DNA of 20,201 bases, from positions 1 to 20,201 of the IMG/VR virus record IMGVR_UViG_3300028794_000200; one strand, 5' to 3'. This stretch comes from a virus. The translations under genes were made by a program, and so were the position numbers. Positions 902 through 20,201 of the stretch are shown piece by piece (positions within the stretch are counted from its first letter, which is position 1; every line of letters starts with the position of its first letter). The notes beneath the pieces were generated by a model, which made no database searches, had not been told where the DNA came from, and saw nothing but the letters and a program-made list of their open reading frames with translations.

Positions 902-976
902 CCCGCCGTAGTTCAATGGATAGAACGGGCGCCTCCTAAGCGCCAGATACAGGTTCGATTCCTGTCGGAGGGACCA
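902..976 (+). tRNA. tRNA-Arg (anticodon CCU), integration target
   Basis: Full cloverleaf of 75 nt including an encoded CCA (974-976). Acceptor strands are 902-908 and 966-972, the D stem is GTTC/GAAC (911-914, 923-926), the anticodon stem is GGCGC/GCGCC (928-932, 940-944) around loop CTCCTAA with anticodon CCT at 935-937, and the T stem is ACAGG/CCTGT around TTCGATT. The fourth acceptor pair is a G905-A969 mismatch. The 3' part from 954 on is duplicated at 18029-18051, which identifies it as the attachment core. The gene remains complete after integration because the element carries the same 3' end. Confidence 0.93.
954..976 (+). other. attL core (direct repeat, left end of element)
   Basis: 23 bp covering the T loop, T stem 3' strand, acceptor 3' strand, discriminator and CCA of tRNA-Arg (TTCGATTCCTGT...GGGACCA). 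The identical sequence occurs at 18029-18051. Tyrosine integrases of the P4 class typically recombine within such tRNA 3' ends. Confidence 0.92.
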
Positions 977-1086: not shown

Positions 1087-1140
1087 GTCTGGGGGCAACT
1101 TTGGGGGCATCAGAATCCGCAACTGAAGGAGTTGCCCCCA
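1087..1140 (+). promoter_or_regulatory. Integrase arm-type repeats, left copy
   Basis: A 23-bp block at 1087-1109 (starting GTCTGGGGGCAACTTTGG) contains two tandem copies of TGGGGGCA. It is repeated exactly at 17972-17994, near the other end. A third, inverted copy (TTGCCCCCA) lies at 1132-1140, immediately before the integrase start. Position inside both att cores and identity suggest integrase arm-binding sites; because they overlap the integrase leader they may also autoregulate it. Confidence 0.65.
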
Positions 1141-1141
1141 A

Positions 1142-2365
1142 ATGCCTCTGACCGACACCGCCATCAAGGCCGCGAAACCCGGCTCGAAACCGCTCCGACT
1201 GTTCGACTCCGGCGGCCTGTATCTCGAACTGGCCCCGAGCGGCGGGCGCTGGTGGCGCCTGAAGTACAGGCACGGCGGGAAGGAGAAGCGGCTCTCGCTG
1301 GGCACCTATCCAGACACCACGCTGAAGGCCGCGCGCGAGCGCCGGGATGAGGCGCGCAAGCTGCTGGCCAGCGGCATGGACCCAGGCGCCGAGCGCAAGG
1401 CCGACAAGTTGCTGGCGCAGCTGGAGGCCGAGCGGGGTTTCAAGCCGGTGGCGCTGGCCTGGCTGAAGCACAACTCCGCCCGCTGGGCGCCTGACACCAA
1501 GGCGAGGGTCCTGGCCAGCCTGGAGGCGGACGCATTCCCCACCCTGGGCGCCATGCCGATCGCGGACATCAAGGCGCGCCACATCGCCGCGGCCGTGCGC
1601 GCGATCGAGCAGCGCGGGGTCGGCGAGACAGCCGTTCGCGTCCTGCAGCGCATCCGGTCCGTGTTTCGGTTCGCCGTGGTGAAGGAGTGGATCGACACGA
1701 ACCCGACACTCGACGTGAAGGCAGACGAGCTGCTGAAGCCACGCCAGGTGAAGCACCGTGCGGCGCTGCCCGAAGCCGAGCTGCCAGCACTCCTGGCCAA
1801 GCTCGATGCGTACGAGGGTGATGTGGCAACCGGGACCGCTCTGCGCCTGCTGCTGCTGACAGTTGTTCGGCCCGGTGAGCTGCGAGGGGCTCGCTGGGAA
1901 GAGATCGACCTCGACGCTGCCCGATGGCGCATTCCGGCTCAACGCATGAAGATGAAGGCCGAGCACCTGGTGCCGCTCTCTCGCCAGGCCGTGGCCCTGT
2001 TCCGCAGCATCGAGGCACATCAGGACCCCGGTGGCTTGGTCTTCCCGAGCCCGTACTACCCCGGCAAGTCGCTCAGTGAGAACACGTTCAACAGTGCGCT
2101 CGCACGCATGGGATACAAGGGCATCGCCACCGCGCATGGCTTCCGGGCGCTCTTCTCGACGGTCGCGAACGAGTGCGGGCACAACCCCGATGTGATCGAG
2201 CGGCAGCTGGCGCATGTCGAGCGCAACGACGTGCGCGCGGCCTACCATCGCGCCGCCTATGTGGCCGAGCGCACTGCCCTGGCGCAGTGGTGGGCCGACT
2301 TCCTCGATGCCAAGCGCACGGGTGTCGTGGTGCCGATCGGCAAGCGCAAGAGTCGCGGCACCTGA
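1142..2365 (+). CDS. int: Tyrosine recombinase/integrase, P4 type
   Basis: 407-aa site-specific recombinase that would integrate and, with an excisionase, excise the element at tRNA-Arg. Residues 1-85 form the DUF4102 N-terminal arm-binding domain (LTDTAIKAAKPG, then DSGGLYLEL and KRLSLGTYPD). The central core-binding domain spans about 95-190 and the catalytic domain 210-390. Visible catalytic residues are R243 (VVRPGELRG), H332 and R335 (HGFR), H358 (LAHVERN) and probable nucleophile Y368 (AAYHRAAY; Y373 is a second candidate). Length is normal for the family. AAGGAG lies ten bases upstream of the ATG. The gene sits directly inside attL and reads inward. Probable autoregulation comes from the TGGGGGCA repeats just upstream. 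The excisionase role may be filled by the AlpA-like protein at 9881. Confidence 0.96.
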   Translation: MPLTDTAIKAAKPGSKPLRLFDSGGLYLELAPSGGRWWRLKYRHGGKEKRLSLGTYPDTTLKAARERRDEARKLLASGMDPGAERKADKLLAQLEAERGFKPVALAWLKHNSARWAPDTKARVLASLEADAFPTLGAMPIADIKARHIAAAVRAIEQRGVGETAVRVLQRIRSVFRFAVVKEWIDTNPTLDVKADELLKPRQVKHRAALPEAELPALLAKLDAYEGDVATGTALRLLLLTVVRPGELRGARWEEIDLDAARWRIPAQRMKMKAEHLVPLSRQAVALFRSIEAHQDPGGLVFPSPYYPGKSLSENTFNSALARMGYKGIATAHGFRALFSTVANECGHNPDVIERQLAHVERNDVRAAYHRAAYVAERTALAQWWADFLDAKRTGVVVPIGKRKSRGT

Positions 2366-3032: not shown

Positions 3033-3533
3033 ATGCGGATAGTCGGGCAGGAGGAAGTCGCCAAGCTGTTCGGCGTCACGGCCAAGACCATCGGCGAATG
3101 GCAGCACGCGGGGTTCCCCGTGCTGGAGCGCGGCGGCGACAACAAGCCGTCGGTGTACGACTCCGCGGCCTGCATTTGGTGGGACGTGCAGCGCAAAGTG
3201 CAGAAGGCCTCTGCACCCGAGACGCCGCAGGATCGCCTCTGGCGCCTGCAGGCCGACGGGCTGGAGCACCAGCTCGCCAAGGAACGTGCGCGCCTCATCC
3301 CAGCGGGCCAGCTCAACCCGCTCCTAGACGCTGCAAGCGCGGCAACGCGGTGCGCTCTGGATCGCGAGTGTTTGCACATCCTGGAGCTTGTCGAGAGCGC
3401 ACCGCCTGGGCGGCTGGAACGGGAGCAAGTTCTCCGTGCTGCCTTCGACAGCTTCCTGCGTCGGCTCTCGCGCTGGCGGCCCGGCGGGCCGGAAGTTGAG
3501 CCGCCGCCACCTGGTGACGGATTGAAGGGCTGA
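3033..3533 (+). CDS. Phage terminase small subunit, Nu1-like DNA-packaging protein
   Basis: 166-aa protein that would recognise the packaging site and recruit a large terminase. Residues 1-55 form the Nu1-type winged helix-turn-helix: VAKLFGVTAKTIGEWQHAGFPVLERGG followed by the family's YDSAACIWW segment. The middle (about 60-95) is charged and helical, as expected for dimerisation. The C-terminus is proline-rich. AGGAG lies six bases before the ATG. The partner large terminase is missing from the element, so the protein must either redirect a helper phage's motor to this DNA, as small terminases of PICI satellites do, or be a relic. Upstream dyads at 2954-3010 are candidate recognition sites. 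It is followed by the three-half-site operator at 3548. Confidence 0.9.
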   Translation: MRIVGQEEVAKLFGVTAKTIGEWQHAGFPVLERGGDNKPSVYDSAACIWWDVQRKVQKASAPETPQDRLWRLQADGLEHQLAKERARLIPAGQLNPLLDAASAATRCALDRECLHILELVESAPPGRLEREQVLRAAFDSFLRRLSRWRPGGPEVEPPPPGDGLKG

Positions 3534-3632: not shown

Positions 3633-4487
3633 ATGAAACTCCCGAAACTCGCCACCCTCTTCGCGCGCCTCTTCAAGTCCGACCCCGAGCCCGTCGTGGT
3701 CGACGCCATGCGGCGTATCGAGGAAGTCGCCGCCGCCGACTCAAGTGCGGCCGAAACCGAGATCGCCACCGCCGAAAGCGCAGCTGCCAGTGCGCGCGCG
3801 ACTGAGCAGGCGGCCAACGATCAAGTCGAGCGCCTCACAGCGCGCGCCACCGAACTGCGCACCAAACTCGCAGACTTGAACGCGCAGTTGGCCACTGGCC
3901 TGAATCGCAGCGCGGCCGACTATGCCCAAGCCGTTGCCTCGGGTGACGACGCGGCGCAGAAGCGAGCCGAAAAGTCGGCTCCGAACGCCATGGCCACGCG
4001 CGAGGAAGCGGCGCGCATCGGCGCGTTGGTCGCTGGCCTCGAAGAGCAGGCAGCATCTTGCCGGGCGACAGCAGCCACGGCCCGCGCGACTTTGGAGAAG
4101 GCGACTCACCGCCTCGGCATCGCCACCTGCGAGCGCACGCATATCGCATGGGACCTGGCGCTGAACGACCTTGCACTGGCCTCTGGTCGACTCTTCGACG
4201 CCTACGAGCGAGCCGTGCGCCTCGTTCCGGTCGAGGTGCAGTTGCTCAAGGCGGCCTATTTCTCCAACCAGCGTTCCCTGGTCGCCCAACTGGACGGCTC
4301 CTATGCCAAGCCAGGGCGATCCGTCGCGCCGCTGACCCAGGACGCAGCGCGCCGTTGCATGCGCCTCCTGGCGGCGCCGGCGGCGGAGGTCGACTTGCCG
4401 CAGGTGCTCGCCACAGCCGCAGAACCTGTCGCGCCTGTAGAGGCGCAACAGACGCTTGACAAAACCATCCAGACAACGGAGTCGTGA
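3633..4487 (+). CDS. Alanine-rich coiled-coil protein, possible scaffold
   Basis: 284-aa protein with no recognised domain. Residues about 25-170 are almost continuous heptad-like, Ala/Glu/Arg-rich helix (IEEVAAADSSAAETEIATAE, ATELRTKLADLNAQLA). A more hydrophobic segment follows (AWDLALNDLALASGRLFDAYERAVRLVPVEVQLLKAAYF, about 172-210), and the C-terminal tail is Ala/Pro-rich. Position two genes before the major capsid protein, helical character and size are those of a capsid scaffolding protein, and no other scaffold or protease is present, so a scaffold or size-determining role is a reasonable inference but no more. It is the first gene after operator A. The ATG at 3633 has no strong Shine-Dalgarno sequence. 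Confidence 0.75.
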   Translation: MKLPKLATLFARLFKSDPEPVVVDAMRRIEEVAAADSSAAETEIATAESAAASARATEQAANDQVERLTARATELRTKLADLNAQLATGLNRSAADYAQAVASGDDAAQKRAEKSAPNAMATREEAARIGALVAGLEEQAASCRATAATARATLEKATHRLGIATCERTHIAWDLALNDLALASGRLFDAYERAVRLVPVEVQLLKAAYFSNQRSLVAQLDGSYAKPGRSVAPLTQDAARRCMRLLAAPAAEVDLPQVLATAAEPVAPVEAQQTLDKTIQTTES

Positions 4488-4488
4488 C

Positions 4489-4746
4489 ATGAACCGAGAC
4501 ACCGCCATCGATCGCGAGTCGATCGTTCATGCCGCCGAATCAACCTGGGCGAGCAATCCGGCCATCCGGCAGGAGTTCGTCGACAACAAGGCGTCCTTCA
4601 TCGCGTACCAGGTGGCATTCGCCGAGGGTCGCTTGCGGGTCCTCGGCAAAGGTGACCAGGACGCCGGCACCGCATCGTCGGCGCCCCCGGCCGGCGGCTT
4701 CCATAGCAAGGCCCACGCTGCAGGCCTGTTCCCCAACGGTCTTTGA
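4489..4746 (+). CDS. Small hypothetical protein between coiled-coil and capsid genes
   Basis: 85-aa protein (MNRDTAIDRESIVHAAES...). GGAG lies seven bases before the ATG at 4489, and the gene begins two bases after the stop of the coiled-coil gene, so the two are one transcription unit. A helical N-terminal half (about 10-50, with AIRQEFVDNKASFIAYQVAF) is followed by a flexible Gly/Ala/Pro-rich tail (GDQDAGTASSAPPAGGFHSK). Small proteins here in phage head modules are often decoration, scaffold-accessory or head-stabilising proteins, but nothing in this sequence fixes a role. Confidence 0.75.
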   Translation: MNRDTAIDRESIVHAAESTWASNPAIRQEFVDNKASFIAYQVAFAEGRLRVLGKGDQDAGTASSAPPAGGFHSKAHAAGLFPNGL

Positions 4747-5973: not shown

Positions 5974-6303
5974 ATGTTCTGCATCACGCCTTCCCCCACC
6001 TTCACCATCGACGTCAACCTATCGTCGCCGGGCAGCGACAAGTCGACGCCGGTGAGCGTTACCTTCAGGCACAAGGGAGCCGCCGAGCTCAAGCTGTGGC
6101 AGCAGCAGGCGCAGGAGCGCAAGACCGAAGCTGAGTTTCTCGGCGAGGTCATCGCAGGCTGGTCGGGCTTTGTGGACCAGGAGGGCGCTCCCGTCGACTA
6201 CACGCCCGCGGCGCTCGAAGCCCTGCTCGATGCCTTTCCGAGCGCGGGGAGCGAGTTCTTCCTGGCGTACCACGGCCGACTCACCAGGCCGCGCGCGGCC
6301 TGA
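5974..6303 (+). CDS. Phage tail assembly chaperone
   Basis: 109-aa protein that would hold the tape measure protein and recruit tail tube subunits during tail assembly. It shows the pattern of siphophage tail assembly chaperones (Phage_TAC type): N-terminal PSPTFTIDVNL, then VSVTFRHKGAAELKLW, a charged helix, GEVIAGWSGFVDQEG and ALEALLDAFPSAGSEFFLAYHGRL. The gene lies immediately before the tape measure gene, the usual place. ATG 5974 was chosen because AGGAG precedes it by nine bases and family members start MF.I.P; a GTG at 5929 would add 15 residues. An open -1 frame with coding-like composition continues to 6356, reminiscent of the lambda G/GT arrangement. No tail tube gene is present in the element, so it would have to act on a helper's tube protein. 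Confidence 0.85.
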   Translation: MFCITPSPTFTIDVNLSSPGSDKSTPVSVTFRHKGAAELKLWQQQAQERKTEAEFLGEVIAGWSGFVDQEGAPVDYTPAALEALLDAFPSAGSEFFLAYHGRLTRPRAA

Positions 6304-6369
6304 GGCCGGCGGTTGCCGCGGCCGACCAGCTGACCCCCACCGATCCGGCGCGCTGAAGGACCACGCAGC

Positions 6370-8478
6370 ATGAGCACCAGAGAAGAAGCCGTCGTCGTCA
6401 TCAAGCTCGACGGCAGCACCGTGCCGGCCAGCGCCGACAGCATTGCCAAGTCGCTTGGCAAGGTCGGCCAGGCCGGCGAGATCAGCGCACGCCAGACCGC
6501 CGCAGCGATGCGCACGCTGCCTGCGCAATTCACCGACATAGCCACCCAGCTGGCCGGCGGCCAGAACCCGCTGCTCATCCTGCTGCAGCAGGGCGGCCAG
6601 ATCAAAGACAGCTTCGGTGGCGTCGGTAACGCCGTCAAGGCGCTGGGTACTTTCATCACGCCGGCCAACCTTCTGCTCGGCGGCCTGGCAGCGACTTTGG
6701 GCACCGTGGCGCTGGCAGCCTACAAGGGCGTGACGCAAACCGACGAGCTGCGCGACATGCTGGCTTTGACGGGCAACGCGGCCGGCGTCACCGCCAGCGG
6801 CGTCGAAGACATCGCGCAACGCATCAGCACCGCGTCAGGGCAGACGGTCGGCGGTGCAAGAGAAATCGCCCTGGCCCTTGCGGCCACCGGGCGCACCAGT
6901 TCGGCCGTGCTGGGCAGCCAGGCACTGGCCATCGCCCGCATCGCTGACCTGTCTGGCGAGAGCGCCAGGAAGATCGCCGGCACCTTCGCATCGCAGCTCG
7001 ACGAACCGGCAAAGTTCGCTGCGAAGCTCAATGAGCAATACAACTTTCTGAACCTGGCGCAGTTCAAGCGCATCCAGCAGTTGGACCAGGAGGGCCGCGC
7101 GGCCGAGGCTGCCAAGCTCACTAACGAGCTGTTGACCAAGGCGCTAGAGGGCCAGCGCGATCAGCTCGGCACCATCGAGAAGTTGCTGGAGGGCACAGCG
7201 AAGCTCTGGGGCCGCTTCTGGCAGGCCGCCCTGAACGAAGGCAAGCCAAGCACCCTGAAGCAGCAGCTCGACACGGTGCGCGGGGAGATCGAGTCGCTGC
7301 AGGGCCGCCTCAACGGCACCGACCCGAACGCTCTGGTGCGCACACCGGATGGCATACGCAACGCGGCCGAGCAGTTGCGCAGCCAGATCATCGCGCGCCA
7401 GCAAATAGCCCGCGAGCTGCAGCGTTCCGTCAGCACTGAACAGCTGAACGCGGACGCCCGCAGCGAGGCCGCGGCGAAGACGCGCGCGGGCATCAAGGAT
7501 GCGTTGGCGTCGTCAGCGGCCACGCGAAAGCTTGACCCAGCCGTCAATTTCGACATCTTGGACTCCAGGGACGCTCGCGCGCGCCTGCTGGAGGCGCAGC
7601 AAGTGGAAGAAGGTCTCGTCGATTCCTTCTTCACCAGCAAGCTGCAACTGCAGGATGAACGCGACGCCCAGCTGCGTGCGAGAGACGCCGAGTTCCTTGC
7701 ATCCCTCCGAGACCAAAACGCCCGCGCCGGCATCGAGCTGATCGCCGACGAGAGGCAGCGGGGCGAAGCCCTCATCGCACTGGATCGCTCCATCGCAGAA
7801 CGACGCCTCGCGGCGCAGGTGAGCCCCGGCGCGCGCGACGAAGCTCTGCGCCTGCTCGGCGAGAAGAGCGGACTCAGCCGCGACAAATTGGACACCGACA
7901 TACGCGCAGCCAGCGACAAGGCCGCTGCAGAAGCCGGCAAGGCCACGTACAACGACGTGCGCAACGCTCTCAGCGCCGCGTTCCGAGACTCGCACAACCC
8001 CGCCAAAGCCTTTGCCAACGCACTGGGCGACGCCGTGTACACACGGCTCACATCCAGCATCGCCGATGCAATCGCCACCGGCGCGGTGGGCAAAGACGGC
8101 AAGGGCGGCATCTTCTGGGACCTGCTGGGCATGTTCTTCCCGGCGATCAAGGGTGGCGGCGTCGACGCCAGCTTCACCGGCGGCTCACCATATCCCGGCT
8201 TCGACCGCCCAGGTGAAGGCCTGGCCACGGGCACGAACTACGTGCAACGCGACATGATCGTCAAGGTGCACAGGGGTGAGGCTGTGGTGCCGGCAAAGTA
8301 CAACCCCGCAGCTGGCGGGGCCGGCGGCACCTCCCGCCTCATCGTGGCCTACTCGCCCACCTTCCAGGTGGACGCACGCGCAGACCAGGCACAAACGGTC
8401 GAAGCGCTGTACCAGATGACCGTTCGCACCCAGCAGGAGTTCGTCGAGCACCTGCGTGCTCGTGGCTTCGCGGTATGA
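6370..8478 (+). CDS. Tail length tape measure protein
   Basis: 702-aa protein that sets tail length and later passes through the tube at DNA entry. Residues about 38-120 are the prophage tape measure N-terminal domain (MRTLPAQFTDIATQLAGGQ, PLLILLQQGGQIKDSFGG, then a hydrophobic segment ANLLLGGLAATLGTVALAA). A long helical, Ala/Arg/Glu-rich middle (about 200-530) follows. The lambda-type C-terminal domain (about 530-660) ends in GLATGTNYVQRDMIVKV and the conserved VHRGEAVVP. Both ends are intact. By the rule of about 0.15 nm per residue it specifies a tail near 105 nm; many family members are longer. AAGGA lies ten bases before the ATG. The stop overlaps the next start (ATGA). Tail tube, terminator and tip genes are absent, so it must work with a helper's tail or be a remnant. 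Confidence 0.94.
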   Translation: MSTREEAVVVIKLDGSTVPASADSIAKSLGKVGQAGEISARQTAAAMRTLPAQFTDIATQLAGGQNPLLILLQQGGQIKDSFGGVGNAVKALGTFITPANLLLGGLAATLGTVALAAYKGVTQTDELRDMLALTGNAAGVTASGVEDIAQRISTASGQTVGGAREIALALAATGRTSSAVLGSQALAIARIADLSGESARKIAGTFASQLDEPAKFAAKLNEQYNFLNLAQFKRIQQLDQEGRAAEAAKLTNELLTKALEGQRDQLGTIEKLLEGTAKLWGRFWQAALNEGKPSTLKQQLDTVRGEIESLQGRLNGTDPNALVRTPDGIRNAAEQLRSQIIARQQIARELQRSVSTEQLNADARSEAAAKTRAGIKDALASSAATRKLDPAVNFDILDSRDARARLLEAQQVEEGLVDSFFTSKLQLQDERDAQLRARDAEFLASLRDQNARAGIELIADERQRGEALIALDRSIAERRLAAQVSPGARDEALRLLGEKSGLSRDKLDTDIRAASDKAAAEAGKATYNDVRNALSAAFRDSHNPAKAFANALGDAVYTRLTSSIADAIATGAVGKDGKGGIFWDLLGMFFPAIKGGGVDASFTGGSPYPGFDRPGEGLATGTNYVQRDMIVKVHRGEAVVPAKYNPAAGGAGGTSRLIVAYSPTFQVDARADQAQTVEALYQMTVRTQQEFVEHLRARGFAV

Positions 8479-8917: not shown

Positions 8918-9811
8918 ATGACGAAGTCACTCAACATCGGTTGCCTCGGCCTGGGTGCCAATGGTCGATTCGCGATCGGCATCCGTTGGCAGTCTCGTGG
9001 CCTTGGCCAGGCAGCGTTCAACCGTTTCTGGGCGGAAGACGCGCCACGCCGGCCCGAGCGCGCGGTGCAGCGTGTCGACCTGTCGCCCGACGGTGAGGCC
9101 GTTGTCTTCGAGCAGCTGCTCGAAGACCAGCGGCGTCAACACTCCGAACTCAACCTTCGCGCCGCTTCCTTGTGGACGCTGCAGCTTTGGACGCTGGCCA
9201 CGGTGGCGCGCGGCGTGCGCGTCTATGCCTTCGAACCTGGCGCTCATGATCGGGACAATGCTGTCGAAGTCACCGGCGACGAAGACTGGGGTGAGTTCAC
9301 CGGGGCTCACTTCACAGACGACTTCGAGAAGGTGTTCGCTGTGTCTCCGCCCGCCAACATCACAGGCGTGAACGCACCAGTCCAGGCAGCGCTCGCGCTG
9401 GCGTCCGAACTTCCAGAATGGGTCGACAACCCTTCGCGTTTGAGCTGCGGCCTGTCGTCTGTGCTCGCTATTCGACTCAAAGATGCACGGGAGTTCTTCG
9501 GCTACCAGGCAGACTCGGCAGCCGATGCCGATGGTGCTCGACCGGCGCCATGCGAGCCTGCGGCGCCTGCGAATGCCGCGTACACCGACGAAGAGTGCCT
9601 GGCCGTGCATCGAGCCTACAAGGACGGCATGGACAAGGCAGAGATCGGCGCCAACTGGGCCCGGTTGCTGCCTGGCCGAAAGGCCCAGGTTTCCCGCGCC
9701 AGCGTGGAGAAGGTGCTCAACATGGTGCTGAGCAGAAACCTGCTGCGCCCGCCTGTCTCCGCTCCCCGCGCCGGCGCATTCGCTGCACCGTCAGCAACTT
9801 TGCAACCGTAG
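8918..9811 (+). CDS. Hypothetical protein, end of the morphogenesis operon
   Basis: 297-aa protein without a recognised family. GGGAG lies six bases before the ATG at 8918, a clear start. The first ~200 residues look globular and mixed alpha/beta (SLWTLQLWTLATVARGVRVYAFEPG; GDEDWGEFTGAHFTDDFEKVF). A low-complexity Ala/Pro linker (about 200-222) leads to a helical, basic C-terminal part (YTDEECLAVHRAYKDGMDKAEIGANWARLLPGRKAQVSRASVEKVLNMVLSRNLL) that could fold as a small DNA-binding helix-turn-helix. This two-part layout suggests a regulator or effector and not a structural protein, but that is inference. A 179-base gap separates it from the preceding gene. Its last codons overlap operator B. 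Confidence 0.75.
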   Translation: MTKSLNIGCLGLGANGRFAIGIRWQSRGLGQAAFNRFWAEDAPRRPERAVQRVDLSPDGEAVVFEQLLEDQRRQHSELNLRAASLWTLQLWTLATVARGVRVYAFEPGAHDRDNAVEVTGDEDWGEFTGAHFTDDFEKVFAVSPPANITGVNAPVQAALALASELPEWVDNPSRLSCGLSSVLAIRLKDAREFFGYQADSAADADGARPAPCEPAAPANAAYTDEECLAVHRAYKDGMDKAEIGANWARLLPGRKAQVSRASVEKVLNMVLSRNLLRPPVSAPRAGAFAAPSATLQP

Positions 9812-9880: not shown

Positions 9881-10141
9881 ATGGAGGCCGCCAAGGTGCA
9901 GCTCGTCAGCGAAACAAGGCCGCAGGTGCGGCAAGACCGGTTGTTGCGCCGGGCCGAAGTCTCCAGGCTCACCGGCCTGGGCCGTACCTCGATCTACACG
10001 CTTGAACGCAAGGGCGAGTTTCCGGCCCGGGTGAGGATCACCGAGCGCAGCGTGGCATGGGCCGAGAGCGCGGTCCTGCAGTGGGTGCAGGACCGCATCG
10101 CACCGGCCAAGCCGGCCGGCGACGAAGGGCACACGTCGTGA
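9881..10141 (+). CDS. AlpA-family regulator / excisionase-like protein
   Basis: 86-aa MerR-like winged helix protein of the AlpA family: RLLRRAEVSRLTGLGRTSIYTLERKGEFPARVRITERSVAWAESAVLQWVQDRI at about residues 20-73 matches the family from recognition helix to wing. In P4- and PICI-like elements such proteins activate element genes or act as excisionases. The ATG at 9881 has no good ribosome binding site; a GTG at 9896 has GGAGG eight bases upstream and may be the true start, giving an 81-aa protein. It is preceded by operator B and its stop overlaps the next gene's GTG start. A plausible ligand for operators A and B is this protein itself, which would make it the switch joining regulation and morphogenesis; this is inference. 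Confidence 0.88.
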   Translation: MEAAKVQLVSETRPQVRQDRLLRRAEVSRLTGLGRTSIYTLERKGEFPARVRITERSVAWAESAVLQWVQDRIAPAKPAGDEGHTS

Positions 10142-11721: not shown

Positions 11722-11834
11722 CGCTGGCCAGCTCGATGACCCCCGGCCAGGCGCGCGCCATGGCCCGGGCACTCAGCGCAGCGGCCGACGCGGCCGAGGC
11801 CGTGCAGGCCCAGCAGTGCGGAGGTGCGCTATGA
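11511..11834 (+). CDS. Hypothetical protein, first gene of the replication operon
   Basis: 107-aa protein. AGGAG (11498-11502) lies eight bases before the ATG at 11511. The first ~30 residues are Pro/Thr/Arg-rich; the rest (GVFTLAGQLACVYSTRRAGACYGVSFELGAGTLTLASSMTPGQARAMARALSAAADAAEAVQ) looks like a small beta sheet followed by a helix. The stop overlaps the next start (ATGA). It stands where C4-controlled elements carry their antirepressor or derepression gene, so a regulatory role is possible, but no family is recognised. Confidence 0.7.
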   Translation: MAGQTLGAPSPVDSTPLSAPRRTLQLVPGSTRTRRSHGVFTLAGQLACVYSTRRAGACYGVSFELGAGTLTLASSMTPGQARAMARALSAAADAAEAVQAQQCGGAL

Positions 11835-12661
11835 ACGCCCCGACGATGACGGCCGCCGCCACCACGACAACCATCGTGGTCAGGCTCACCGCTTCCATCT
11901 GCCAGCACTACCGGGCTCGCGGCGTGTACGCTGACCTCATGTCCGCCCGCGACGACAGCGGGCACGTGAGCATTGACGGCAACGGCGCGGCCGGCTTGTT
12001 GGCCGATGCCGAGGGGCAGCTCCTGCGTCGCGATATCCCGCGCGGCCAGCCGAGGGCGCTGAGGTCACTTGTCGAGCAGCTGCGTGCCGCCCTTGGCATT
12101 GCTCCGTTGGGTGACGAGCAGGCATCGAAGCGGGAGCGCATGCTTGAGGATCGTGCGCTGTCGATGATCGGCCGGCCGTTGCGGCGGCCCGATCGCTGGG
12201 ATGCTGACCAGCTCAGGAAAGCGCGGGAACTGGTCGAGGCTGAGCGGTTGAAGCTCGCGGGCATGCCGAGCACCGATGCTGAGTTCTGCCGCCACGTTGC
12301 CGCGTTGTTCTGGTCGGCCTGGAGCACGGTGTACTACCAGTGCATGGCCGACAACACGCACGAGAGCGGCTTCAAGTTCTCGTCTGACGCTTCACGGGTG
12401 CTGAACGACATGGCGAAGGGCTTGTACCTTCGCATTCGCAACGCCCACCAGCACGAGATCGTCGACGCTGGCGATGATGACGACGAAGCCGATGGTCTCG
12501 TCCACAACGGCGCCAAAGGCCAGGTGATCCTCGATCCGTCGGTGCGCATCGGGGCGCTGGCGAACGCCATGGCCACTGCCGCCAGGGCAGACGCCATGCT
12601 CCAAGACCTCGTCGAGCGCGCCGCGGGTGCTGCTGCTGCGGCAGCGAGGAAGACAGCATGA
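11831..12661 (+). CDS. Hypothetical protein, replication operon
   Basis: 276-aa protein. GGAGG lies six bases before the ATG at 11831. A Thr/Ala-rich start leads into a helical, charged body (ERMLEDRALSMIGRPLRRPDRWDADQLRKARELVEAERLKLAG), then EFCRHVAALFWSAWSTVYYQCMADNTHESGFKFSSDASRVLNDMAKGLYLRIRNAHQHEIVD. An acidic stretch (DAGDDDDEADG) follows, and the tail is Ala-rich. No catalytic motif recognised. Coupled to both neighbours by ATGA overlaps. Third codon positions in the middle are slightly less GC-biased than in neighbouring genes. Probably an accessory to replication or early control. Confidence 0.75.
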   Translation: MNAPTMTAAATTTTIVVRLTASICQHYRARGVYADLMSARDDSGHVSIDGNGAAGLLADAEGQLLRRDIPRGQPRALRSLVEQLRAALGIAPLGDEQASKRERMLEDRALSMIGRPLRRPDRWDADQLRKARELVEAERLKLAGMPSTDAEFCRHVAALFWSAWSTVYYQCMADNTHESGFKFSSDASRVLNDMAKGLYLRIRNAHQHEIVDAGDDDDEADGLVHNGAKGQVILDPSVRIGALANAMATAARADAMLQDLVERAAGAAAAAARKTA

Positions 12662-13089
12662 GCGCCCGCACGATCAAGAGCACGGGCCAGAAAGCCGGCC
12701 CCGACCCGTGGCAGCTGCTGCGCGCGCTCGATGGCTGGATGGCAGCAGCGCACTACGGCGCTGACCATCCCTGGCGCGTGTCGATCGCGCAGGCGGTCTC
12801 GAAGGCGCCGGCTGCGGCCGTCACCGCGAGCGATGCGCATGCAGAGGCCGCACAAGACGTGTTTGCGCAGATCGCCATGCAAGCCGACACGATCATCGAC
12901 CTGCTGCAAAACCACGACGACGCGCTGACCACGCGCGACCTGGCAGCGGTGGCCCTCGCCCGCAACATCGGTTGCGTTGCTGACATCGCCTACACCGCGA
13001 TGGGCGGCGCCGGCATCAAGGGCACCGAGGCCTGGCTGCTGGCCCCGGCCACGAAGGCCTCTCTTCTGGCCATGGGAGGTGCAGCATGA
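12658..13089 (+). CDS. Hypothetical protein, replication operon
   Basis: 143-aa, almost entirely helical protein (DPWQLLRALDGWMAAAHYGADHPWRVSIAQAVSKAPAAAV; DVFAQIAMQADTIIDLLQNHDDALTTRDLAAVALARNIG). GAGGAAG precedes the ATG, which overlaps the previous stop. No motif identified. The repeated short-helix architecture resembles small phage accessory proteins, but no role can be given. Confidence 0.72.
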   Translation: MSARTIKSTGQKAGPDPWQLLRALDGWMAAAHYGADHPWRVSIAQAVSKAPAAAVTASDAHAEAAQDVFAQIAMQADTIIDLLQNHDDALTTRDLAAVALARNIGCVADIAYTAMGGAGIKGTEAWLLAPATKASLLAMGGAA

Positions 13090-13529
13090 ACGCGCGTGCA
13101 CCGAACCCGAACGTGCCGCCGCTATCGCCGGAGATGGATGCCTTCGTTGACGACGCGCTCCATTCCGCCCTAGCGCACGCGGCGCCGCCCGGACCGTTCG
13201 ATCTGGCGACTCTCACGCGGCTGCTGATGGCGCGCGCACTGCCCGCGCTGTCGGAAAGCGAACTTCAGTGGATCGCTGGTCAGTCGGGCGAACTGGCCCG
13301 CCGCATGGCGAACGAATCGGCCACCGTGATGGAGGCCGTGGGTTGCCTGCTCGCCGGGGACAACGCCAAGCACGGAATGGGCAACTTCCGAGGCCAGAAC
13401 GATGCCCCGGCGCTCGCCTTGCACGCGGCGGCGATGTTCACCGAGCTGGAGGCGCTGATCAACGTCGACATCGACGCTTGCTTTGCCCTGCGCGAGCGAC
13501 GCAAGACTCGCGGTGGGGACCCACGATGA
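13086..13529 (+). CDS. Hypothetical protein, replication operon
   Basis: 147-aa helical protein with GGGAGG seven bases before an ATG that overlaps the preceding stop. Features: acidic N-terminal segment (SPEMDAFVDDALHSALAHAAPPG), WIAGQSGELARRMANESATVMEAVGCLLAGDN, and a C-terminal helix ending in basic residues (ALRERRKTRGGDPR). The tail's end overlaps the next start. No family recognised. Confidence 0.72.
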   Translation: MNARAPNPNVPPLSPEMDAFVDDALHSALAHAAPPGPFDLATLTRLLMARALPALSESELQWIAGQSGELARRMANESATVMEAVGCLLAGDNAKHGMGNFRGQNDAPALALHAAAMFTELEALINVDIDACFALRERRKTRGGDPR

Positions 13530-13873
13530 CGCGCGGCGACCCGGGTGCCTGGACCACCGAGGAAGCGGCAGTGCTGCGCACCGCGCCGGCCGCGGTGGCC
13601 GCGCAGCTGGCGGTGCTGGGCAGTGACCTGCCCGGCTTCGACAACGGCGACAGAGCGCACCTGCGCCGCGTGGCGCACGCCCTGGGCGGAATGCAGCGCA
13701 ACCGCGACGAAGCGCTGCGCCTGGCGCGTGAAGCGATGGCCGCACGCGCAAGCATCGCGGCGCAGTGCTCACGGCCCGAGGCTGTGCTGCTGCAGGCCGT
13801 GCTGTACCTGCTGGCGCACGACGAGCGCCTGCGCCAGGCAGCCGAAGAGCAAGCGGGTTCGCAGGCCGCATGA
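13526..13873 (+). CDS. Hypothetical protein upstream of primase-helicase
   Basis: 115-aa Ala/Arg-rich helical protein (MTRGDPGAWTTEEAAVLRTAPAAVAAQLAVLGSDLPG...). Both start and stop overlap neighbouring genes by ATGA, so it is almost certainly made together with the replicase. The pair of helices with LRRVAHALGGMQRNRDEALRLAREAMAARASIAAQ suggests a coiled coil. Could be a replication accessory factor; no direct evidence. Confidence 0.7.
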   Translation: MTRGDPGAWTTEEAAVLRTAPAAVAAQLAVLGSDLPGFDNGDRAHLRRVAHALGGMQRNRDEALRLAREAMAARASIAAQCSRPEAVLLQAVLYLLAHDERLRQAAEEQAGSQAA

Positions 13874-16815
13874 CGAAGCGCACAGCTGCGAAGGGCAAGC
13901 GCGCGCCGGTGCAGGCCACGCCCGAGCTGGTGCGCCAGGCGCTGGCCAGCGTGCCGCCCGACGTTGGGCATGACGAGCGCGTGCGCATCGCGTTCGCCGT
14001 GTTCGACGGCGTCGGCGACGCCGGCAGCGACGCGTTCCTCGACTGGGCCGGCGGGCGCGGCAAGCCCGACCATGCAGAAGACCTGGCGGTGTGGAAGAGC
14101 GCGCGCAAGCCCGGGCCGGTGAAGGTGGCCACCCTCTTCGGCATCGCCAAAGACCACGGCTGGCGGTTCCCTGAAAGCGGCCAGCAGCCGGCCGTCGACT
14201 CCGCGGCGGCCGAGAAGCTGCGCGCCGACAAAGAGAAGCGCCAGGCCGAGATCGAGGCCGAATACCGGGCCCGGGCCGATGGCACTGCCATCGCGGCGCG
14301 GCGCCTGTGGGATGGGGCCAGCGAGCAGGGCAGCAGCCCGTACCTCGACCGCAAGGGCGTCGGCGCGCACGGCCTGCGGTTCCTGCCCGACGGCACGCTG
14401 CTGGTGCCCATGCGCAACGCGGCCGGCGAGCTGATGAACGTGCAGCGCATTGCGCCCGTCAAGCCAGCAGACGGCAAGGACAAACGCTACATGGCCGGCG
14501 GCCGCAAGTCGGCCTTGTGGCACCCGCTCGGCGTGTTCGAAGGCGCGACAGCGCTGCTGCTAGCCGAGGGCTATGCCACGGCCGCCACTGTGCACGAGGC
14601 ATCGGGCGCGCCGGCCGCGGTGTGCTTCGACTCCGGCAACCTGGCCAACGTGGCACGCGAGCTGCGCAGCCTGCACCCGGCGGCCCTGCTGCTGGTGTGC
14701 GGCGACGACGACCGAGATACGGCCGAACGCACCGGCAGGAACCCGGGCCGCGACTCCGCGGCCACGGCAGCGCGAGCCGTTGACTGCGACACCGGCAGCG
14801 CCGGTGCGGTGTTCCCCGAGGGCCTGCCGGAAGGTGGCACCGACTGGAACGACTTGGCGGCGCACGCCGGCCTGCAGGCCGTGGCCGAGCAGCTGCGCGC
14901 GGCGATCGCGGCGCCGCAGGTGCCGAAGGCGCGCCGAGGCGGCAAATCGGCCGCTGGCGGGCCGAGCGAAACCAAGGACGACGAAATGGAGCCACAGGCC
15001 ACCGACGCCGGCGCCAGCGGCCGTGCCGCGGCGGCTCCGGGCGATGGCGGTGATGCCGACCCGTTCGAGGTCAGCGACGCCGGTGTCTACTTCATCGAGA
15101 AGGAACGACGGCCGTGGCGCATCTGCGCCCGCCTGGACGTGCTGGCACACACGCGCGCCGAAGACACGAACGGCTGGGGCTTTCTGGTCGAGTTCAAGGA
15201 CCGCGACAACAACGTCAAGTCCTGGGCCATGCCCGAGAGCATGCTCAACGGCGAGGGGGCCGAGTGGGCTGCGCGGCTGGGCGACATGGGTCTCTTCATC
15301 GCCTACGGTCCCAAGGCTCGCAACCTGGTCGGGCAGTACATCAAGACTCGACGGCTCACCGAGCGCGTCACCTGCGTCGACCGGGTGGGCTGGTGGGGCG
15401 GCGGTGTCTACGTGCTGCCGTCCGGGTGCATCGGCGCCGTCGAGGGCCGCCGCTTCGTGTTCCAGAGCGAAGCGGGCATGGAGGACACCTTCCGCAGGCA
15501 CGGCGAGCTGGCGCAGTGGCGCAGCAGCGTCGCGGCGCTGGCGGCCGACAACTCGCGGCTGATCTTCGCGCTGTGCTGCGCGTTCGCCGGGCCCATGCTC
15601 CGCCTGGCGGGCATGGAGAGCGGTGGCTACTCGCTCCGGGGCGCATCGAGCACGGGCAAGAGCACGGCGCTCAAGATCGCGGCCAGCGTGTGGGGCCGAC
15701 CGAGCTACATGCAGACCTGGCGCCAGACCGACAACCACCTCGAAGCCACGGCCGTGCAGCACTCCGACGCGCTGCTGGTGCTGGACGAACTGGGCCAGGT
15801 CGACCCGCGCCTGGCCGGCGAATGCGCATACCTGCTGGCCTCTGGCCAGGAGAAGGGCCGCAACACGCGCGGCGGGCTCAACCGCAAGCGGCGCACGTGG
15901 CAGCTGCTTTTCCTGTCGTCGGGCGAAGTCTCGCTGGCCGATCACATGATCGAGGGCGGGCGGCGCACGCACGCTGGCCAGGAAGTGCGCATGGTCGACG
16001 TGCCGGTCGACGCGGGCGCCGGCATGGGCATCATCGAAGAGCGCCACGGCCGCGAGAGCGCCGCCGAGATCGCGGACACGATCACCGCCAACGCTGCGCG
16101 CTTCTACGGCACTGCGGGCCGTGCCTGGCTGGAATGGGCCTGTGCGCACTATGCGCAGCTGCCGGGCCTGCTGGCCGCTCGAATCGACCGGTACAGGGCC
16201 GACTTCGTGCCTGAGGCCGCGTCAGAGCAGGTGCGCCGCGTCGGCTCCCGCTTCGCCCTGGTGGCAGCTGCGGGCGAGTTGGCCAGTGAAGCCGGCATCA
16301 CCGGCTGGAAGCCCGGGCATGCGGCCTGGGGCGTGCGCCGGTGCTTCGAGGGATGGCTCGCTTCGCGCGGCCACCTCGACAACGGCGAAGACGCGGCGAT
16401 GCTGCGCCAGGTGCAGCACTTCATCGAGAAGAACGGCGACGCCCTGTTCACCTGGGAACAGCGCCTGGCCGAGGATCACCGCCCGTCGACCGCGTTGCGT
16501 GGCGGTGTGAAGCGCCGCGTGTCGGAAGACGGCGAGCCCCTGAAGGACGACACGGCGACCGACTACCTCGACCGGCGCAGCGCCGCGGCGTCGAGCGAGA
16601 TCCAGGCCAGTCTCACCGAGTACCTGGTCTTCCCGGAGTCCTTCCGCCGCGACGTCTGCAAGGGCTTCGACCATGCAGCTGTTGCCGCCCTGCTGAAACA
16701 GCGGGGCCACCTGCGGCACGACGCTAACCGGCTCACGATGCAGGTGCGCCTGCGTGCGCTGGGTCGTGTGTCGGTGTACCGCGTCCTGCCGTCCATCTTG
16801 CAGGATCAAATCTAG
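13870..16815 (+). CDS. Primase-helicase (PriCT-2, TOPRIM, DUF927 ATPase)
   Basis: 981-aa replication protein that would prime and unwind the element's DNA. Domains: PriCT-2-like N-terminus (about 18-85, HDERVRIAFAVFDGVGDAGSDAFLDWAGG...LFGIAKDHGW); TOPRIM core (about 160-340) with catalytic E233 (LLLAEGYATAA) and the acidic run D279-D283 (GDDDRD); a low-complexity linker (about 365-395); and a DUF927 helicase domain (about 400-750) with Walker A GASSTGKST (591-599, K597) and Walker B LLVLDELGQ (D639, E640). A helical C-terminal region (about 780-981) may bind DNA. No zinc finger is visible, unlike P4 alpha protein. Start overlaps the preceding stop (ATGA). Iteron clusters at both element ends are its likely targets. 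Confidence 0.93.
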   Translation: MTKRTAAKGKRAPVQATPELVRQALASVPPDVGHDERVRIAFAVFDGVGDAGSDAFLDWAGGRGKPDHAEDLAVWKSARKPGPVKVATLFGIAKDHGWRFPESGQQPAVDSAAAEKLRADKEKRQAEIEAEYRARADGTAIAARRLWDGASEQGSSPYLDRKGVGAHGLRFLPDGTLLVPMRNAAGELMNVQRIAPVKPADGKDKRYMAGGRKSALWHPLGVFEGATALLLAEGYATAATVHEASGAPAAVCFDSGNLANVARELRSLHPAALLLVCGDDDRDTAERTGRNPGRDSAATAARAVDCDTGSAGAVFPEGLPEGGTDWNDLAAHAGLQAVAEQLRAAIAAPQVPKARRGGKSAAGGPSETKDDEMEPQATDAGASGRAAAAPGDGGDADPFEVSDAGVYFIEKERRPWRICARLDVLAHTRAEDTNGWGFLVEFKDRDNNVKSWAMPESMLNGEGAEWAARLGDMGLFIAYGPKARNLVGQYIKTRRLTERVTCVDRVGWWGGGVYVLPSGCIGAVEGRRFVFQSEAGMEDTFRRHGELAQWRSSVAALAADNSRLIFALCCAFAGPMLRLAGMESGGYSLRGASSTGKSTALKIAASVWGRPSYMQTWRQTDNHLEATAVQHSDALLVLDELGQVDPRLAGECAYLLASGQEKGRNTRGGLNRKRRTWQLLFLSSGEVSLADHMIEGGRRTHAGQEVRMVDVPVDAGAGMGIIEERHGRESAAEIADTITANAARFYGTAGRAWLEWACAHYAQLPGLLAARIDRYRADFVPEAASEQVRRVGSRFALVAAAGELASEAGITGWKPGHAAWGVRRCFEGWLASRGHLDNGEDAAMLRQVQHFIEKNGDALFTWEQRLAEDHRPSTALRGGVKRRVSEDGEPLKDDTATDYLDRRSAAASSEIQASLTEYLVFPESFRRDVCKGFDHAAVAALLKQRGHLRHDANRLTMQVRLRALGRVSVYRVLPSILQDQI

Positions 16816-16845: not shown

Positions 16846-17292
16846 CTATGGGTACAGGATTACCAGCGAGCCAGTGGGGCCGTTCCAGTCGAGCTGGACC
16901 AAGTCGAGGATGTCGCGGCCGAGCAGGCCGTGGTGCCCATGCTCTCTGAGCGCCGTGGCCATGATCTTGAAGGGATCGAAGCGCCAAAGGTTCTGATCGG
17001 CGAGGGTGCCTAACGCCAGCGAGACAGGGTACACATCGCACTCGGCTGCCACCCCTTGGGTGGACGAGGAATGGTACTGACACGAATCAATTGGCGAGAT
17101 GCCGAGCGATGCAAGCCGGGACGCATCCACGAACGTGTGCGAAGCGCCGGTGTCTACCAGCAGGGTCAGCACGATACTCGGCGGTAGTGCCTGGCCTGCG
17201 CGCACCAACGCGTGCCGGTTCGGCTTGGCAACGCCGATTTCGACGTCGACCAGGGCACCGATGGGACCTATCCGACTGGTCAGTCGGCGCAC
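16846..17292 (-). CDS. Retropepsin-like aspartyl protease
   Basis: 148-aa single-domain aspartyl protease. Catalytic motif LLVDTGASHTFVD at residues 45-57 (D47, T48, G49), and the second family motif HGLLGRDILD (about 120-129) that forms the psi-loop support. Prokaryotic retropepsins act as dimers, each chain giving one aspartate. Start at GTG 17292, thirteen bases inside the end of the upstream DUF5678-like gene, so translation is coupled. The pair faces the replication operon and lies in the right-end cargo position of the element. No signal peptide or membrane segment, hence a cytoplasmic enzyme. Substrate unknown; an abortive-infection or regulatory protease role is speculation. Confidence 0.87.
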   Translation of the reverse strand: MRRLTSRIGPIGALVDVEIGVAKPNRHALVRAGQALPPSIVLTLLVDTGASHTFVDASRLASLGISPIDSCQYHSSSTQGVAAECDVYPVSLALGTLADQNLWRFDPFKIMATALREHGHHGLLGRDILDLVQLDWNGPTGSLVILYP

Positions 17293-17522
17293 GAACCAAC
17301 GTGCCGCGACAAGTAGGCAACCGGCTCGACCGCGTTGACTTGCTTGACCATGAACCGTTGGAGTCCGAACGTCTCGTATGCCCAGTCCAGGGCTTCTTCA
17401 TACGTGGGCAGGATCTTGCAGATGTCGTCGCCACGGATGACCACGTACTGGCCTTCTCCCGCTTTGAGCATGTCTGTCAAGGCCGACTCATAGGTCTGCC
17501 TTTCCTTGTCCAAATTCAGCAT
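17280..17522 (-). CDS. DUF5678-like small protein paired with the protease
   Basis: 80-aa protein resembling the DUF5678 domain: GQYVVIRGDDICKILPTYEEALDWAYETFGLQRFMVKQV at about residues 24-62 has the pattern 'G-x-YV-x-I-x-GD...-TYEEAL-x-x-x-Y-x-x-F-G-x-x-x-F-x-VKQ'. AAGGAGA lies seven bases before the ATG, the strongest ribosome site in this part. Its end overlaps the protease start. I recall DUF5678 proteins next to retropepsin-like proteases in other bacteria, which suggests a partner, inhibitor or adaptor. Together they form the only cargo operon on the right side. Confidence 0.8.
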   Translation of the reverse strand: MLNLDKERQTYESALTDMLKAGEGQYVVIRGDDICKILPTYEEALDWAYETFGLQRFMVKQVNAVEPVAYLSRHVGSCAD

Positions 17523-17758
17523 GTCGTGTCTCCTTCGCCTGCTGTGGACCGAGCGCTTTGATGACGCCCCTTCGTGTGCATACGCTCAAGTCGAATTGTG
17601 CGCTGCAGCGGCGACGGTGCGTCCATCGCTCTGGGGGGTTACGTTAGTGGGCAAAACGGGAGCGACCATTGGTGTTCATCCCGAGGTTCAGAACGGGCGA
17701 GCTGAGCCACTACTGAATCAGCGGCAGGAGTCGTGCCCGCCACGTGTGGGGGCGCCGA

Positions 17759-17971: not shown

Positions 17972-17994
17972 GTCTGGGGGCAACTTTGGGGGCA
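17972..17994 (+). promoter_or_regulatory. Integrase arm-type repeat, right copy
   Basis: Exact 23-bp copy of the sequence at 1087-1109, containing two tandem TGGGGGCA units, 35 bases inside attR. Same orientation as the left copy. Together they probably form the arm sites of attP. Confidence 0.65.
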
Positions 17995-18028: not shown

Positions 18029-18051
18029 TTCGATTCCTGTCGGAGGGACCA
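18029..18051 (+). other. attR core (direct repeat, right end of element)
   Basis: Exact 23-bp copy of 954-976 (TTCGATTCCTGT...GGGACCA). It is not preceded by other tRNA sequence, so it is the displaced chromosomal tRNA 3' end and fixes the right boundary. Confidence 0.92.
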
Positions 18052-19364: not shown

Positions 19365-20201
19365 TCAGCGCGCGCGGCGCCGCGATGCGGCCAGTGCCAG
19401 CAGGCCGATGCCGACCAGGCTTGAAGACACCGGTTCCGGCACCGGATTGAAGCCGCCGTCGTCGACTCTCACGTTGCCCGCCAGCGTGGTGGCGTTGCCG
19501 GCGGCGTCGGTGTCGACGATGTTCAAGCCGCCGACCAGCCCGAACGAGTTGTGGGTCGGGTCGTTCAGATCGGCCGCGGTCAGCCCCAGCGACAGGCCGT
19601 AGGCCGTGGGGGTGAACGGCGGCGCGGCGCCGATCGAGGTCACGTCCACCGGCAGGTAGCCGAACAGATCCGGGGCCGTCGCGCCGGCGAGCAGGTTGGC
19701 GCCGCAGGGGAAGCACTCGGAAGACGCGAACAGGCCGCCACCGGCGTTGATGAAGGCCTGGATGTCGGCCTTGCGCGCGATCAGCCCGTCGAGCTCGGCG
19801 CGCGTCAGCGTACCGCCGAACGACGATGCGACGGCGATTGCGGTGTATTGCGAGAAGTCGACGGTGGCCAGGCCGGCCGCGTTGACGATGTCGAAGTCGG
19901 CCGCCGTGACGCCGATGTCGTCGAGCGAGTTGTAGCCTTTGACGTGGCCACCGGGCGCTGCGATGTCCGACTCGACCCACAGGAACTTGGTCGTCGCGAG
20001 GCCATCGTTGTAGGTGCCGCCGGTCACGAAGGACATGGCCGTGGCCAGCAGATGGCTGCCACTGCCCAGCCCCGGCTGCGAGTGGAAGTCGGGGTCATGC
20101 CCGGTGATGAAGATCGGGCCCGCTTGCGCAGCACCGCTGGCCATCAACAGTGCGGAACTGGCCAGCGCTAGCGCCATCGTCTTGAAACTGGGTCGGCTCA
20201 T
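19365..20201 (-). CDS. PEP-CTERM exported protein
   Basis: 278-aa secreted protein. Sec signal peptide at residues 1-27 (KTMALALASSALLMASGAAQA, cleavage after AQA). The mature part is Gly/Ala/Asp-rich with FITGHDPDFHSQPGLGSG at its start. The C-terminal sorting signal is PEP (255-257) followed by a hydrophobic helix (SSSLVGIGLLALAA) and the basic end SRRRAR. PEP-CTERM proteins are anchored or released at the cell surface by an exosortase and are common in exopolysaccharide-producing Gram-negatives. The central part, with DIVNAAGLATVDFSQYTAIAVAS and IQAFINAGGGLFASSECFP, resembles a glutamine-amidotransferase-like fold, which is tentative. The ATG is the last triplet of the window and fits the signal peptide. 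Confidence 0.93.
   Translation of the reverse strand: MSRPSFKTMALALASSALLMASGAAQAGPIFITGHDPDFHSQPGLGSGSHLLATAMSFVTGGTYNDGLATTKFLWVESDIAAPGGHVKGYNSLDDIGVTAADFDIVNAAGLATVDFSQYTAIAVASSFGGTLTRAELDGLIARKADIQAFINAGGGLFASSECFPCGANLLAGATAPDLFGYLPVDVTSIGAAPPFTPTAYGLSLGLTAADLNDPTHNSFGLVGGLNIVDTDAAGNATTLAGNVRVDDGGFNPVPEPVSSSLVGIGLLALAASRRRAR

What the first reader, a model, noticed from the sequence alone, without database searches (positions are those of the whole stretch)
5974..8478. Stand-alone tail chaperone and tape measure module: possible tail shortening of a helper
Seen: intact 109-aa chaperone and 702-aa tape measure protein with both conserved ends, but no tail tube, terminator or tip gene. 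Known: tape measure length sets tail length at about 0.15 nm per residue, and the chaperone couples it to the tube protein. Inference: these two proteins could compete with the helper's own pair and build tails of about 105 nm dedicated to the satellite, perhaps also carrying its own DNA-injection specificity.
Basis: partly seen in the sequence, partly recalled or inferred. Interest (0 to 1): 0.65.

Follow-up and report, generated by a model that had tools for sequence, protein, structure and literature searches.

The report
Phage satellite with own tail ruler
A 17-kb parasitic DNA element in a bacterial chromosome carries its own shell protein and its own tail-length ruler plus half of the ruler's chaperone, but none of the parts that make the tail tube, so it probably builds hybrid virus particles on another virus's tails; a few other such parasites do the same, and one such case has been proven in cholera bacteria.

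Summary
A TAC_4 chaperone (5974-6303, 109 aa) and a lambda gpH-type tape measure protein (6370-8478, 702 aa) lie in a complete element bounded by a 23-bp att repeat (954-976 / 18029-18051) at a tRNA-Arg gene. It has an integrase, TerS, a gpT-type capsid protein, AlpA and a DUF927 primase, but no large terminase, portal, connector, terminator, tube or tip gene.

In the phage relatives the chaperone ORF ends in a -1 slippery heptamer followed by a ~100-145 aa T ORF (lambda G/GT). The window has lost both: its chaperone is "G-only", able to hold the ruler but not to recruit tube protein.

Stand-alone tape measure genes of other ruler families occur in at least 3 of 48 related integrase-primase satellites. 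Vibrio PLE satellites are proven to put their own TMP and BhuB into chimeric tails.

Best reading: a satellite with its own capsid and ruler that borrows the helper's GT, tube and tip. Tail shortening is not supported: 702 aa equals its own phage clade (608-736 aa), though other prophage rulers in a related host family are longer. The helper is unknown.

The parts
902..976 (+). tRNA-Arg (CCT), integration target
   Evidence: ARAGORN
954..976 (+). attL: 23-bp exact repeat TTCGATTCCTGTCGGAGGGACCA (3' end of the tRNA)
   Evidence: the repeat finder D6
1087..1109 (+). left arm-type repeat GTCTGGGGGCAACTTTGGGGGCA, likely integrase arm site (inferred)
   Evidence: the repeat finder D7
1142..2365 (+). 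tyrosine integrase (Arm-DNA-bind_3 + Phage_integrase)
3033..3533 (+). small terminase subunit, Nu1 type
   Evidence: Pfam Phage_Nu1 40.3 bits (cut-off 30); phrog_57 3.5e-15
3633..4487 (+). 284-aa coiled-coil protein in the place of portal and protease; candidate satellite scaffold (inferred)
   Evidence: no family; single-sequence AlphaFold: long helices, pLDDT 69, only the first ~170 residues confident
4489..4746 (+). 85-aa protein homologous only to the C-terminal ~45 aa of the phage head maturation protease
   Evidence: matches end at the protease C-terminus in L096, L097, L113, L119
4780..5748 (+). major capsid protein, Mu gpT type; 43% to Pseudomonas phage KT1, 39% to Sinorhizobium phage phi3LM21
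   Evidence: Pfam 84.6 bits, phrog_371 2.3e-32
5974..6303 (+). tail assembly chaperone, G part only; no slippery heptamer, no -1 T extension
6304..6369 (+). shortened TAC-TMP spacer: TMP starts 67 nt after the TAC stop; the T ORF stands here in the phages
6370..8478 (+). tape measure protein, TMP_2 / lambda gpH type, 702 aa
8475..8738 (+). 87-aa ORF overlapping the TMP stop, unknown
   Evidence: no family
8918..9811 (+). 297-aa ORF, unknown
   Evidence: no significant family
9881..10141 (+). AlpA-type regulator/excisionase
   Evidence: Phage_AlpA 61.9 bits
10491..11039 (-). possible regulator on the opposite strand (weak MarR-like match, below cut-off)
11816..12661 (+). 281-aa protein of the replication operon, unknown
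12658..13873 (+). three overlapping small ORFs of the replication operon (143, 147, 115 aa)
   Evidence: the 147-aa one has relatives in two other satellites
13870..16815 (+). primase/helicase (PriCT_2 + Toprim_3 + DUF927)
   Evidence: relatives up to 62% in Burkholderiales satellites
16846..17292 (-). retropepsin-like aspartyl protease, cargo
   Evidence: Asp_protease_2 34.7 bits (cut-off 24.3)
17972..17994 (+). right arm-type repeat, identical to 1087-1109
18029..18051 (+). attR

Best explanation
This is an integrated phage satellite of about 17.1 kb. It replicates with its own primase, marks its DNA for packaging with its own TerS, makes its own capsid shell (gpT-type protein, perhaps scaffolded by the coiled-coil ORF and the retained protease tail), and loads its own tape measure protein into tails otherwise built from helper parts. 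The G-only chaperone keeps the satellite TMP soluble. The helper's GT fusion must then join the complex and bring in the helper's tube protein; helper tip, terminator, connectors, portal, protease and large terminase complete a chimeric particle whose tail length and ejection ruler are the satellite's. Shown here: gene content, att sites, absence of the other structural genes, loss of T and its frameshift site, recurrence in other satellites. Inferred: expression, use in particles, borrowing of helper GT, the identity of the helper.
For: Element bounded by 23-bp att repeats at a tRNA. MCP-to-TMP distance is 625 bp here against 2.4-4.7 kb in about 27 phage loci, where connectors, terminator, tube and TAC-T lie between. 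TAC and TMP are coding-like and full length, with no recognisable remnant of the missing genes. Stand-alone TMPs of different families lie in other int-primase satellites: L376 720 aa, L382 TMP_3 1098 aa, L425 742 aa, next to AlpA and/or primase. L228 has TerS, an HK97-type MCP and a TMP 47% identical to the window's. L005 shows the same MCP-TMP compression with dN/dS of about 0.22 for TMP and MCP against close phage relatives. Precedent: all V. cholerae PLEs encode TMP and TAC; PLE11 virions contain PLE TMP and BhuB and exclude the ICP1 ones, tails are 10 nm shorter, and tmp deletion cuts transduction by 96-99.9% (PMC12987554). G binds TMP and T recruits tube protein (PMC4493119, PMC5009743).
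Against: No helper, no particles and no expression data. The window's host genome is not held, so a compatible prophage could not be sought. Without T the satellite pair cannot start a tail alone. No close relative of the whole element was found, so selection on the window's own genes could not be measured directly.
Confidence: 0.6

Rival explanations
1. Interference: the G-only chaperone and TMP are weapons rather than building parts. Extra G upsets the required G:GT ratio, or G-TMP complexes without T trap tip and tube factors, so helper tails fail and satellite transfer or host survival gains.
For: A balanced G:GT ratio is required in lambda and TP901-1, and T mutants give tail-less capsids (PMC4493119). 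Satellites use tail-assembly inhibitors (Tai, PMC11364771; Rta, PMC12987554). Exactly the tube-recruiting half is gone.
Against: A full-length TMP with a conserved C-terminus is more than a decoy needs; the capsid and TerS genes beside it point to particle building; three other satellites carry a TMP with no lambda-type TAC.
Confidence: 0.2
2. Decay: the module is what is left of a lambda-like prophage that shrank by deletions or recombined with a satellite, and the TAC-TMP pair no longer functions.
For: Gene order follows phages such as phi3LM21 with genes removed. The 85-aa ORF is homologous only to the tail end of a protease, and T was cut away.
Against: TerS, MCP, TAC and TMP are all open, with normal GC3 and no frameshifts; no remnant of the lost genes is detectable; similar compression occurs in elements with unrelated MCP families (L005, L228), and stand-alone TMPs of other families occur in other satellites.
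Confidence: 0.15
3. Tail shortening: the point of the gene pair is to make tails of about 105 nm, shorter than the helper's, dedicated to the satellite.
For: 33 prophage TMPs of the anchor genome's family have open frames of 769-2805 aa, all longer than 702. PLE tails are 10 nm shorter than ICP1 tails.
Against: Nearest phage TMPs are 608-736 aa, the L005 satellite-type TMP has the length of its phage relative (699 against 696), and other satellite TMPs are up to 1098 aa. The PLE difference looks like a by-product of a different TMP.
Confidence: 0.05

Closest known systems
Vibrio cholerae PLE tac-tmp-bhuB cluster (PMC12987554)
   Same: Integrated satellite encoding its own TAC and TMP without a tube gene; in PLEs shown to enter chimeric tails
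   Different: Host group, helper type (contractile ICP1), replication and integration genes; PLE also brings BhuB, whereas no tip or hub gene is found here; the window adds its own TerS and MCP; whether PLE TAC has a T extension was not tested
P4-like satellites (P4; Pseudomonas AH14b, PMC4936722)
   Same: tRNA-integrated, tyrosine integrase, AlpA, primase, about 17 kb, no complete structural set
   Different: P4 and AH14b encode no capsid protein or TMP; P4 uses Sid and Psu; the primase here is of PriCT_2-Toprim-DUF927 type
Capsid-forming PICIs (definition quoted in PMC10690885)
   Same: Own capsid protein and packaging function, dependence on helper tails; some cf-PICIs carry putative tmp genes (PMC12987554, Ext. 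Data Fig. 10)
   Different: cf-PICIs carry TerL, portal, protease and connectors; none of these are here
Lambda G/GT-H tail module
   Same: TMP homologous to gpH-type rulers; chaperone in the G position
   Different: No slippery site and no T domain; no tube, terminator or tip genes
Sinorhizobium phage phi3LM21 and Pseudomonas phage KT1
   Same: Capsid family and gene order TerS ... MCP ... TAC-TMP
   Different: They are full phages with neck and tube genes between MCP and TMP (2.4 kb measured in phi3LM21)

Membership tests
P4-like phage satellite | Tyrosine integrase with att repeats at a tRNA gene | tested here: met
P4-like phage satellite | AlpA-type regulator and own primase/helicase | tested here: met
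   relatives in many int-AlpA-primase elements
P4-like phage satellite | P4-specific capsid genes (sid, psu) | tested here: not met
   no such family among element ORFs; hence filed as P4-like in backbone only, not as a P4 family member
P4-like phage satellite | Mobilisation by a helper phage | not testable with these tools
   host genome not held
Capsid-forming PICI | Own large terminase, portal, protease and head-tail connectors | tested here: not met
   none found; portal search of the whole record empty
Capsid-forming PICI | Own major capsid protein | tested here: met
   gpT-type MCP
PLE-type tail-manipulating satellite | Own TAC and TMP without a tube gene | tested here: met
PLE-type tail-manipulating satellite | Own baseplate hub (BhuB) | tested here: not met
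   no hub or tip family found
PLE-type tail-manipulating satellite | Satellite TMP present in particles, helper TMP excluded | not testable with these tools
   needs particles
Lambda gpH-type tape measure protein | TMP_2 domain and homology to a solved lambda-type tape measure | tested here: met
Lambda G/GT chaperone | G-domain ORF just before TMP | tested here: met
   34-50% identity to 11 phage chaperones
Lambda G/GT chaperone | -1 slippery heptamer and overlapping T ORF of about 100-145 aa | tested here: not met
   present in the phage relatives, absent here

The most novel reading that the evidence does not exclude
Satellites of this kind carry a deliberately halved chaperone: keeping G and deleting T with its frameshift site lets the satellite ruler take the helper's GT and tube while the extra G lowers the helper's own G:GT balance, so one gene both borrows and sabotages. 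Tail hijacking by ruler replacement would then be a widespread tactic of int-AlpA-primase satellites with several independent TMP acquisitions.
Probability: 0.25. Interest if true: 0.8.

Novelty: new variant of a known kind. Interest (0 to 1): 0.6.

Why it matters
The 2026 PLE paper called PLEs the first satellites shown to manipulate tail assembly and found putative tmp genes in a few others. The present data extend this to P4-like satellites of Burkholderiales, with rulers of several unrelated families and, in the window, a chaperone stripped of the half that recruits tube protein. That gives a clean natural test of whether G and T must come from the same genome, and of how a satellite chooses its own ruler over the helper's.

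Tried and rejected
Other ORFs of the element as missing tail genes: 43 scanned against PHROGs, only one weak unknown match. T domain elsewhere in the window: best tblastn E 0.037 against about 1e-20 in controls. Remnants of deleted genes in the gaps: only low-complexity noise. Fold search of the TAC model (pLDDT 84): no useful PDB match; PDB sequence search with the TAC profile: one chance-level match. Single-protein scans with MCP and with primase found no relatives in viral or genome contigs, so alignments and the genome search were used. L005 as a fully proven satellite: withdrawn, because its phage relatives keep the portal after the tip and the L005 contig ends there. tRNA-based att search in two TMP satellites (G387, G618) gave no second copy. 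Defence-gene scan of the unknown ORFs: only weak matches for the aspartyl protease. Relatives of the satellite TMPs in the same genomes as helper candidates: none in G387 or G333, one weak match in G618.

Full report
What is there. The window is an IMG/VR record of 20,201 bases holding a complete integrated element with host DNA on both sides. A tRNA-Arg gene at 902-976 ends in 23 bases repeated exactly at 18029-18051, and a second exact 23-base repeat just inside each end (1087, 17972) looks like integrase arm sites. Inside are an integrase, a Nu1-type small terminase, a coiled-coil ORF, an 85-aa ORF, a gpT-type capsid protein, the TAC and TMP of the finding, AlpA, and a PriCT_2-Toprim-DUF927 primase. 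The remaining ORFs show no tail, neck, portal or large terminase family, and the portal family is absent from the record.

The pair itself. The TMP matches a solved lambda-type tape measure protein (8iyk_H, 4.5e-37) and aligns over its whole length with six relatives. Codon-position composition equals that of the integrase and capsid genes.

What is missing, precisely. In phages with a related capsid or TMP, 2.4-4.7 kb of connectors, terminator, tube and chaperone genes lie between MCP and TMP; in the window the gap is 625 bp. In the phage relatives the chaperone ORF ends in a -1 slippery heptamer (A AAA AAC or G GGA AAC in 23 of 24 examined; the 24th has AAA AAC slightly upstream). A -1 ORF runs 99-138 aa past the chaperone stop in all but one locus (L171, whose near-identical copy L170 has it), carrying conserved T-domain residues. 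In the window the ORF ends CGC GCG GCC TGA, only 17 codons are open in the -1 frame, and the TMP starts 67 nt downstream. In lambda and TP901-1, G holds the TMP and T recruits the tube protein; T mutants give tail-less capsids and G mutants give TMP aggregates (PMC4493119, PMC5009743). The window thus encodes the TMP-holding half only.

The head side shows a similar reduction. The 85-aa ORF corresponds only to the last ~45 residues of the phage head maturation protease and follows a 284-aa coiled-coil ORF. A satellite scaffold is a possible reading, not tested.

Is it a family trait? The window's primase has relatives up to 62% identical in 46 of 401 genomes of one Burkholderiales family. Of 48 loci in which both integrase and primase could be placed, at least three carry a stand-alone TMP of a different family: L376 (720 aa), L382 (TMP_3, 1098 aa) and L425 (742 aa). 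Others carry a capsid protein or protease-capsid fusion (L377, L379, L390), a TerS-like protein (L384, L386, L389, L390, L444), a head protease (L389) or a tail tip protein (L447). The count is a lower bound: only ORFs of 450 aa or more on the primase strand were screened. An Aquincola MAG contig (L228) has TerS, an HK97-type capsid protein and a TMP 47% identical to the window's, with one in-frame TAG near its start. L005 has integrase, helicase, TerL, capsid, TMP and tip with only 55 bp between capsid and TMP; its capsid DNA is 91-93% and its TMP DNA 78-79% identical to phages L008/L009, which have 3.99 kb there, and dN/dS is about 0.22. Its contig is open at the end where those phages keep the portal, so it is a probable, not proven, satellite.

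Length. 702 residues at 0.15 nm give about 105 nm. The nearest full-length phage TMPs are 608-736 aa, and L005 (699) equals L008 (696), so the satellite rulers have the length of the phage lineages they resemble. Prophage TMPs in the anchor genome's family are longer, 769-2805 aa open frames. Whether tails are shorter than the helper's depends on an unknown helper.

Literature. The Nature 2026 study of V. cholerae (PMC12987554) shows that PLE satellites replace the helper's TMP and hub, need tmp for transfer, and make tails 10 nm shorter; it lists putative tmp genes in cf-PICIs and other Vibrio elements. The principle is therefore known. New here are the P4-like host element, the combination with own TerS and capsid, the several independent ruler families, and the chaperone without T.

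Judgement. Chimeric particles with the satellite's shell and ruler on the helper's tail parts is the best reading (0.6). Interference through the G:GT balance is the main rival (0.2), then decay (0.15); tail shortening as the purpose is unlikely (0.05).

Noticed in passing
L008 (record G795), L002 (G793), L010 (G796): A phage clade with a ClpP-protease/capsid fusion keeps its portal gene downstream of the tail tip instead of between terminase and protease.
   Followed up: partly
L377 (17268-19445) and L379 (17084-19504): Two int-AlpA-primase satellites in one genome end in a single protease-capsid fusion gene and no other structural gene was seen.
   Followed up: partly
L447, 5266-8337: A 1023-aa central tail fibre (J-like) protein upstream of a satellite-type primase: possibly a satellite carrying its own tail tip.
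   Followed up: no
L389, 11163-12524 and about 17256-17735: A satellite with a stand-alone head maturation protease and a TerS-like protein after the primase.
   Followed up: no
L425, 7032-7385 minus strand: A 117-aa chaperone-like ORF directly overlaps the start of the stand-alone TMP, again without a T ORF between; no family match.
   Followed up: partly
L228, about 3060: The TMP of the Aquincola MAG contig has one in-frame TAG near its start in an otherwise open frame: decay or sequencing error.
   Followed up: no
window 16846-17292 minus strand: A retropepsin-like aspartyl protease near the right end of the element.
   Followed up: no
window 19365-20201 and 19487-19585: Host flank: a PEP-CTERM-like protein gene (by eye), with a predicted tRNA-Leu lying antisense inside its frame, possibly a false tRNA call.
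   Followed up: no
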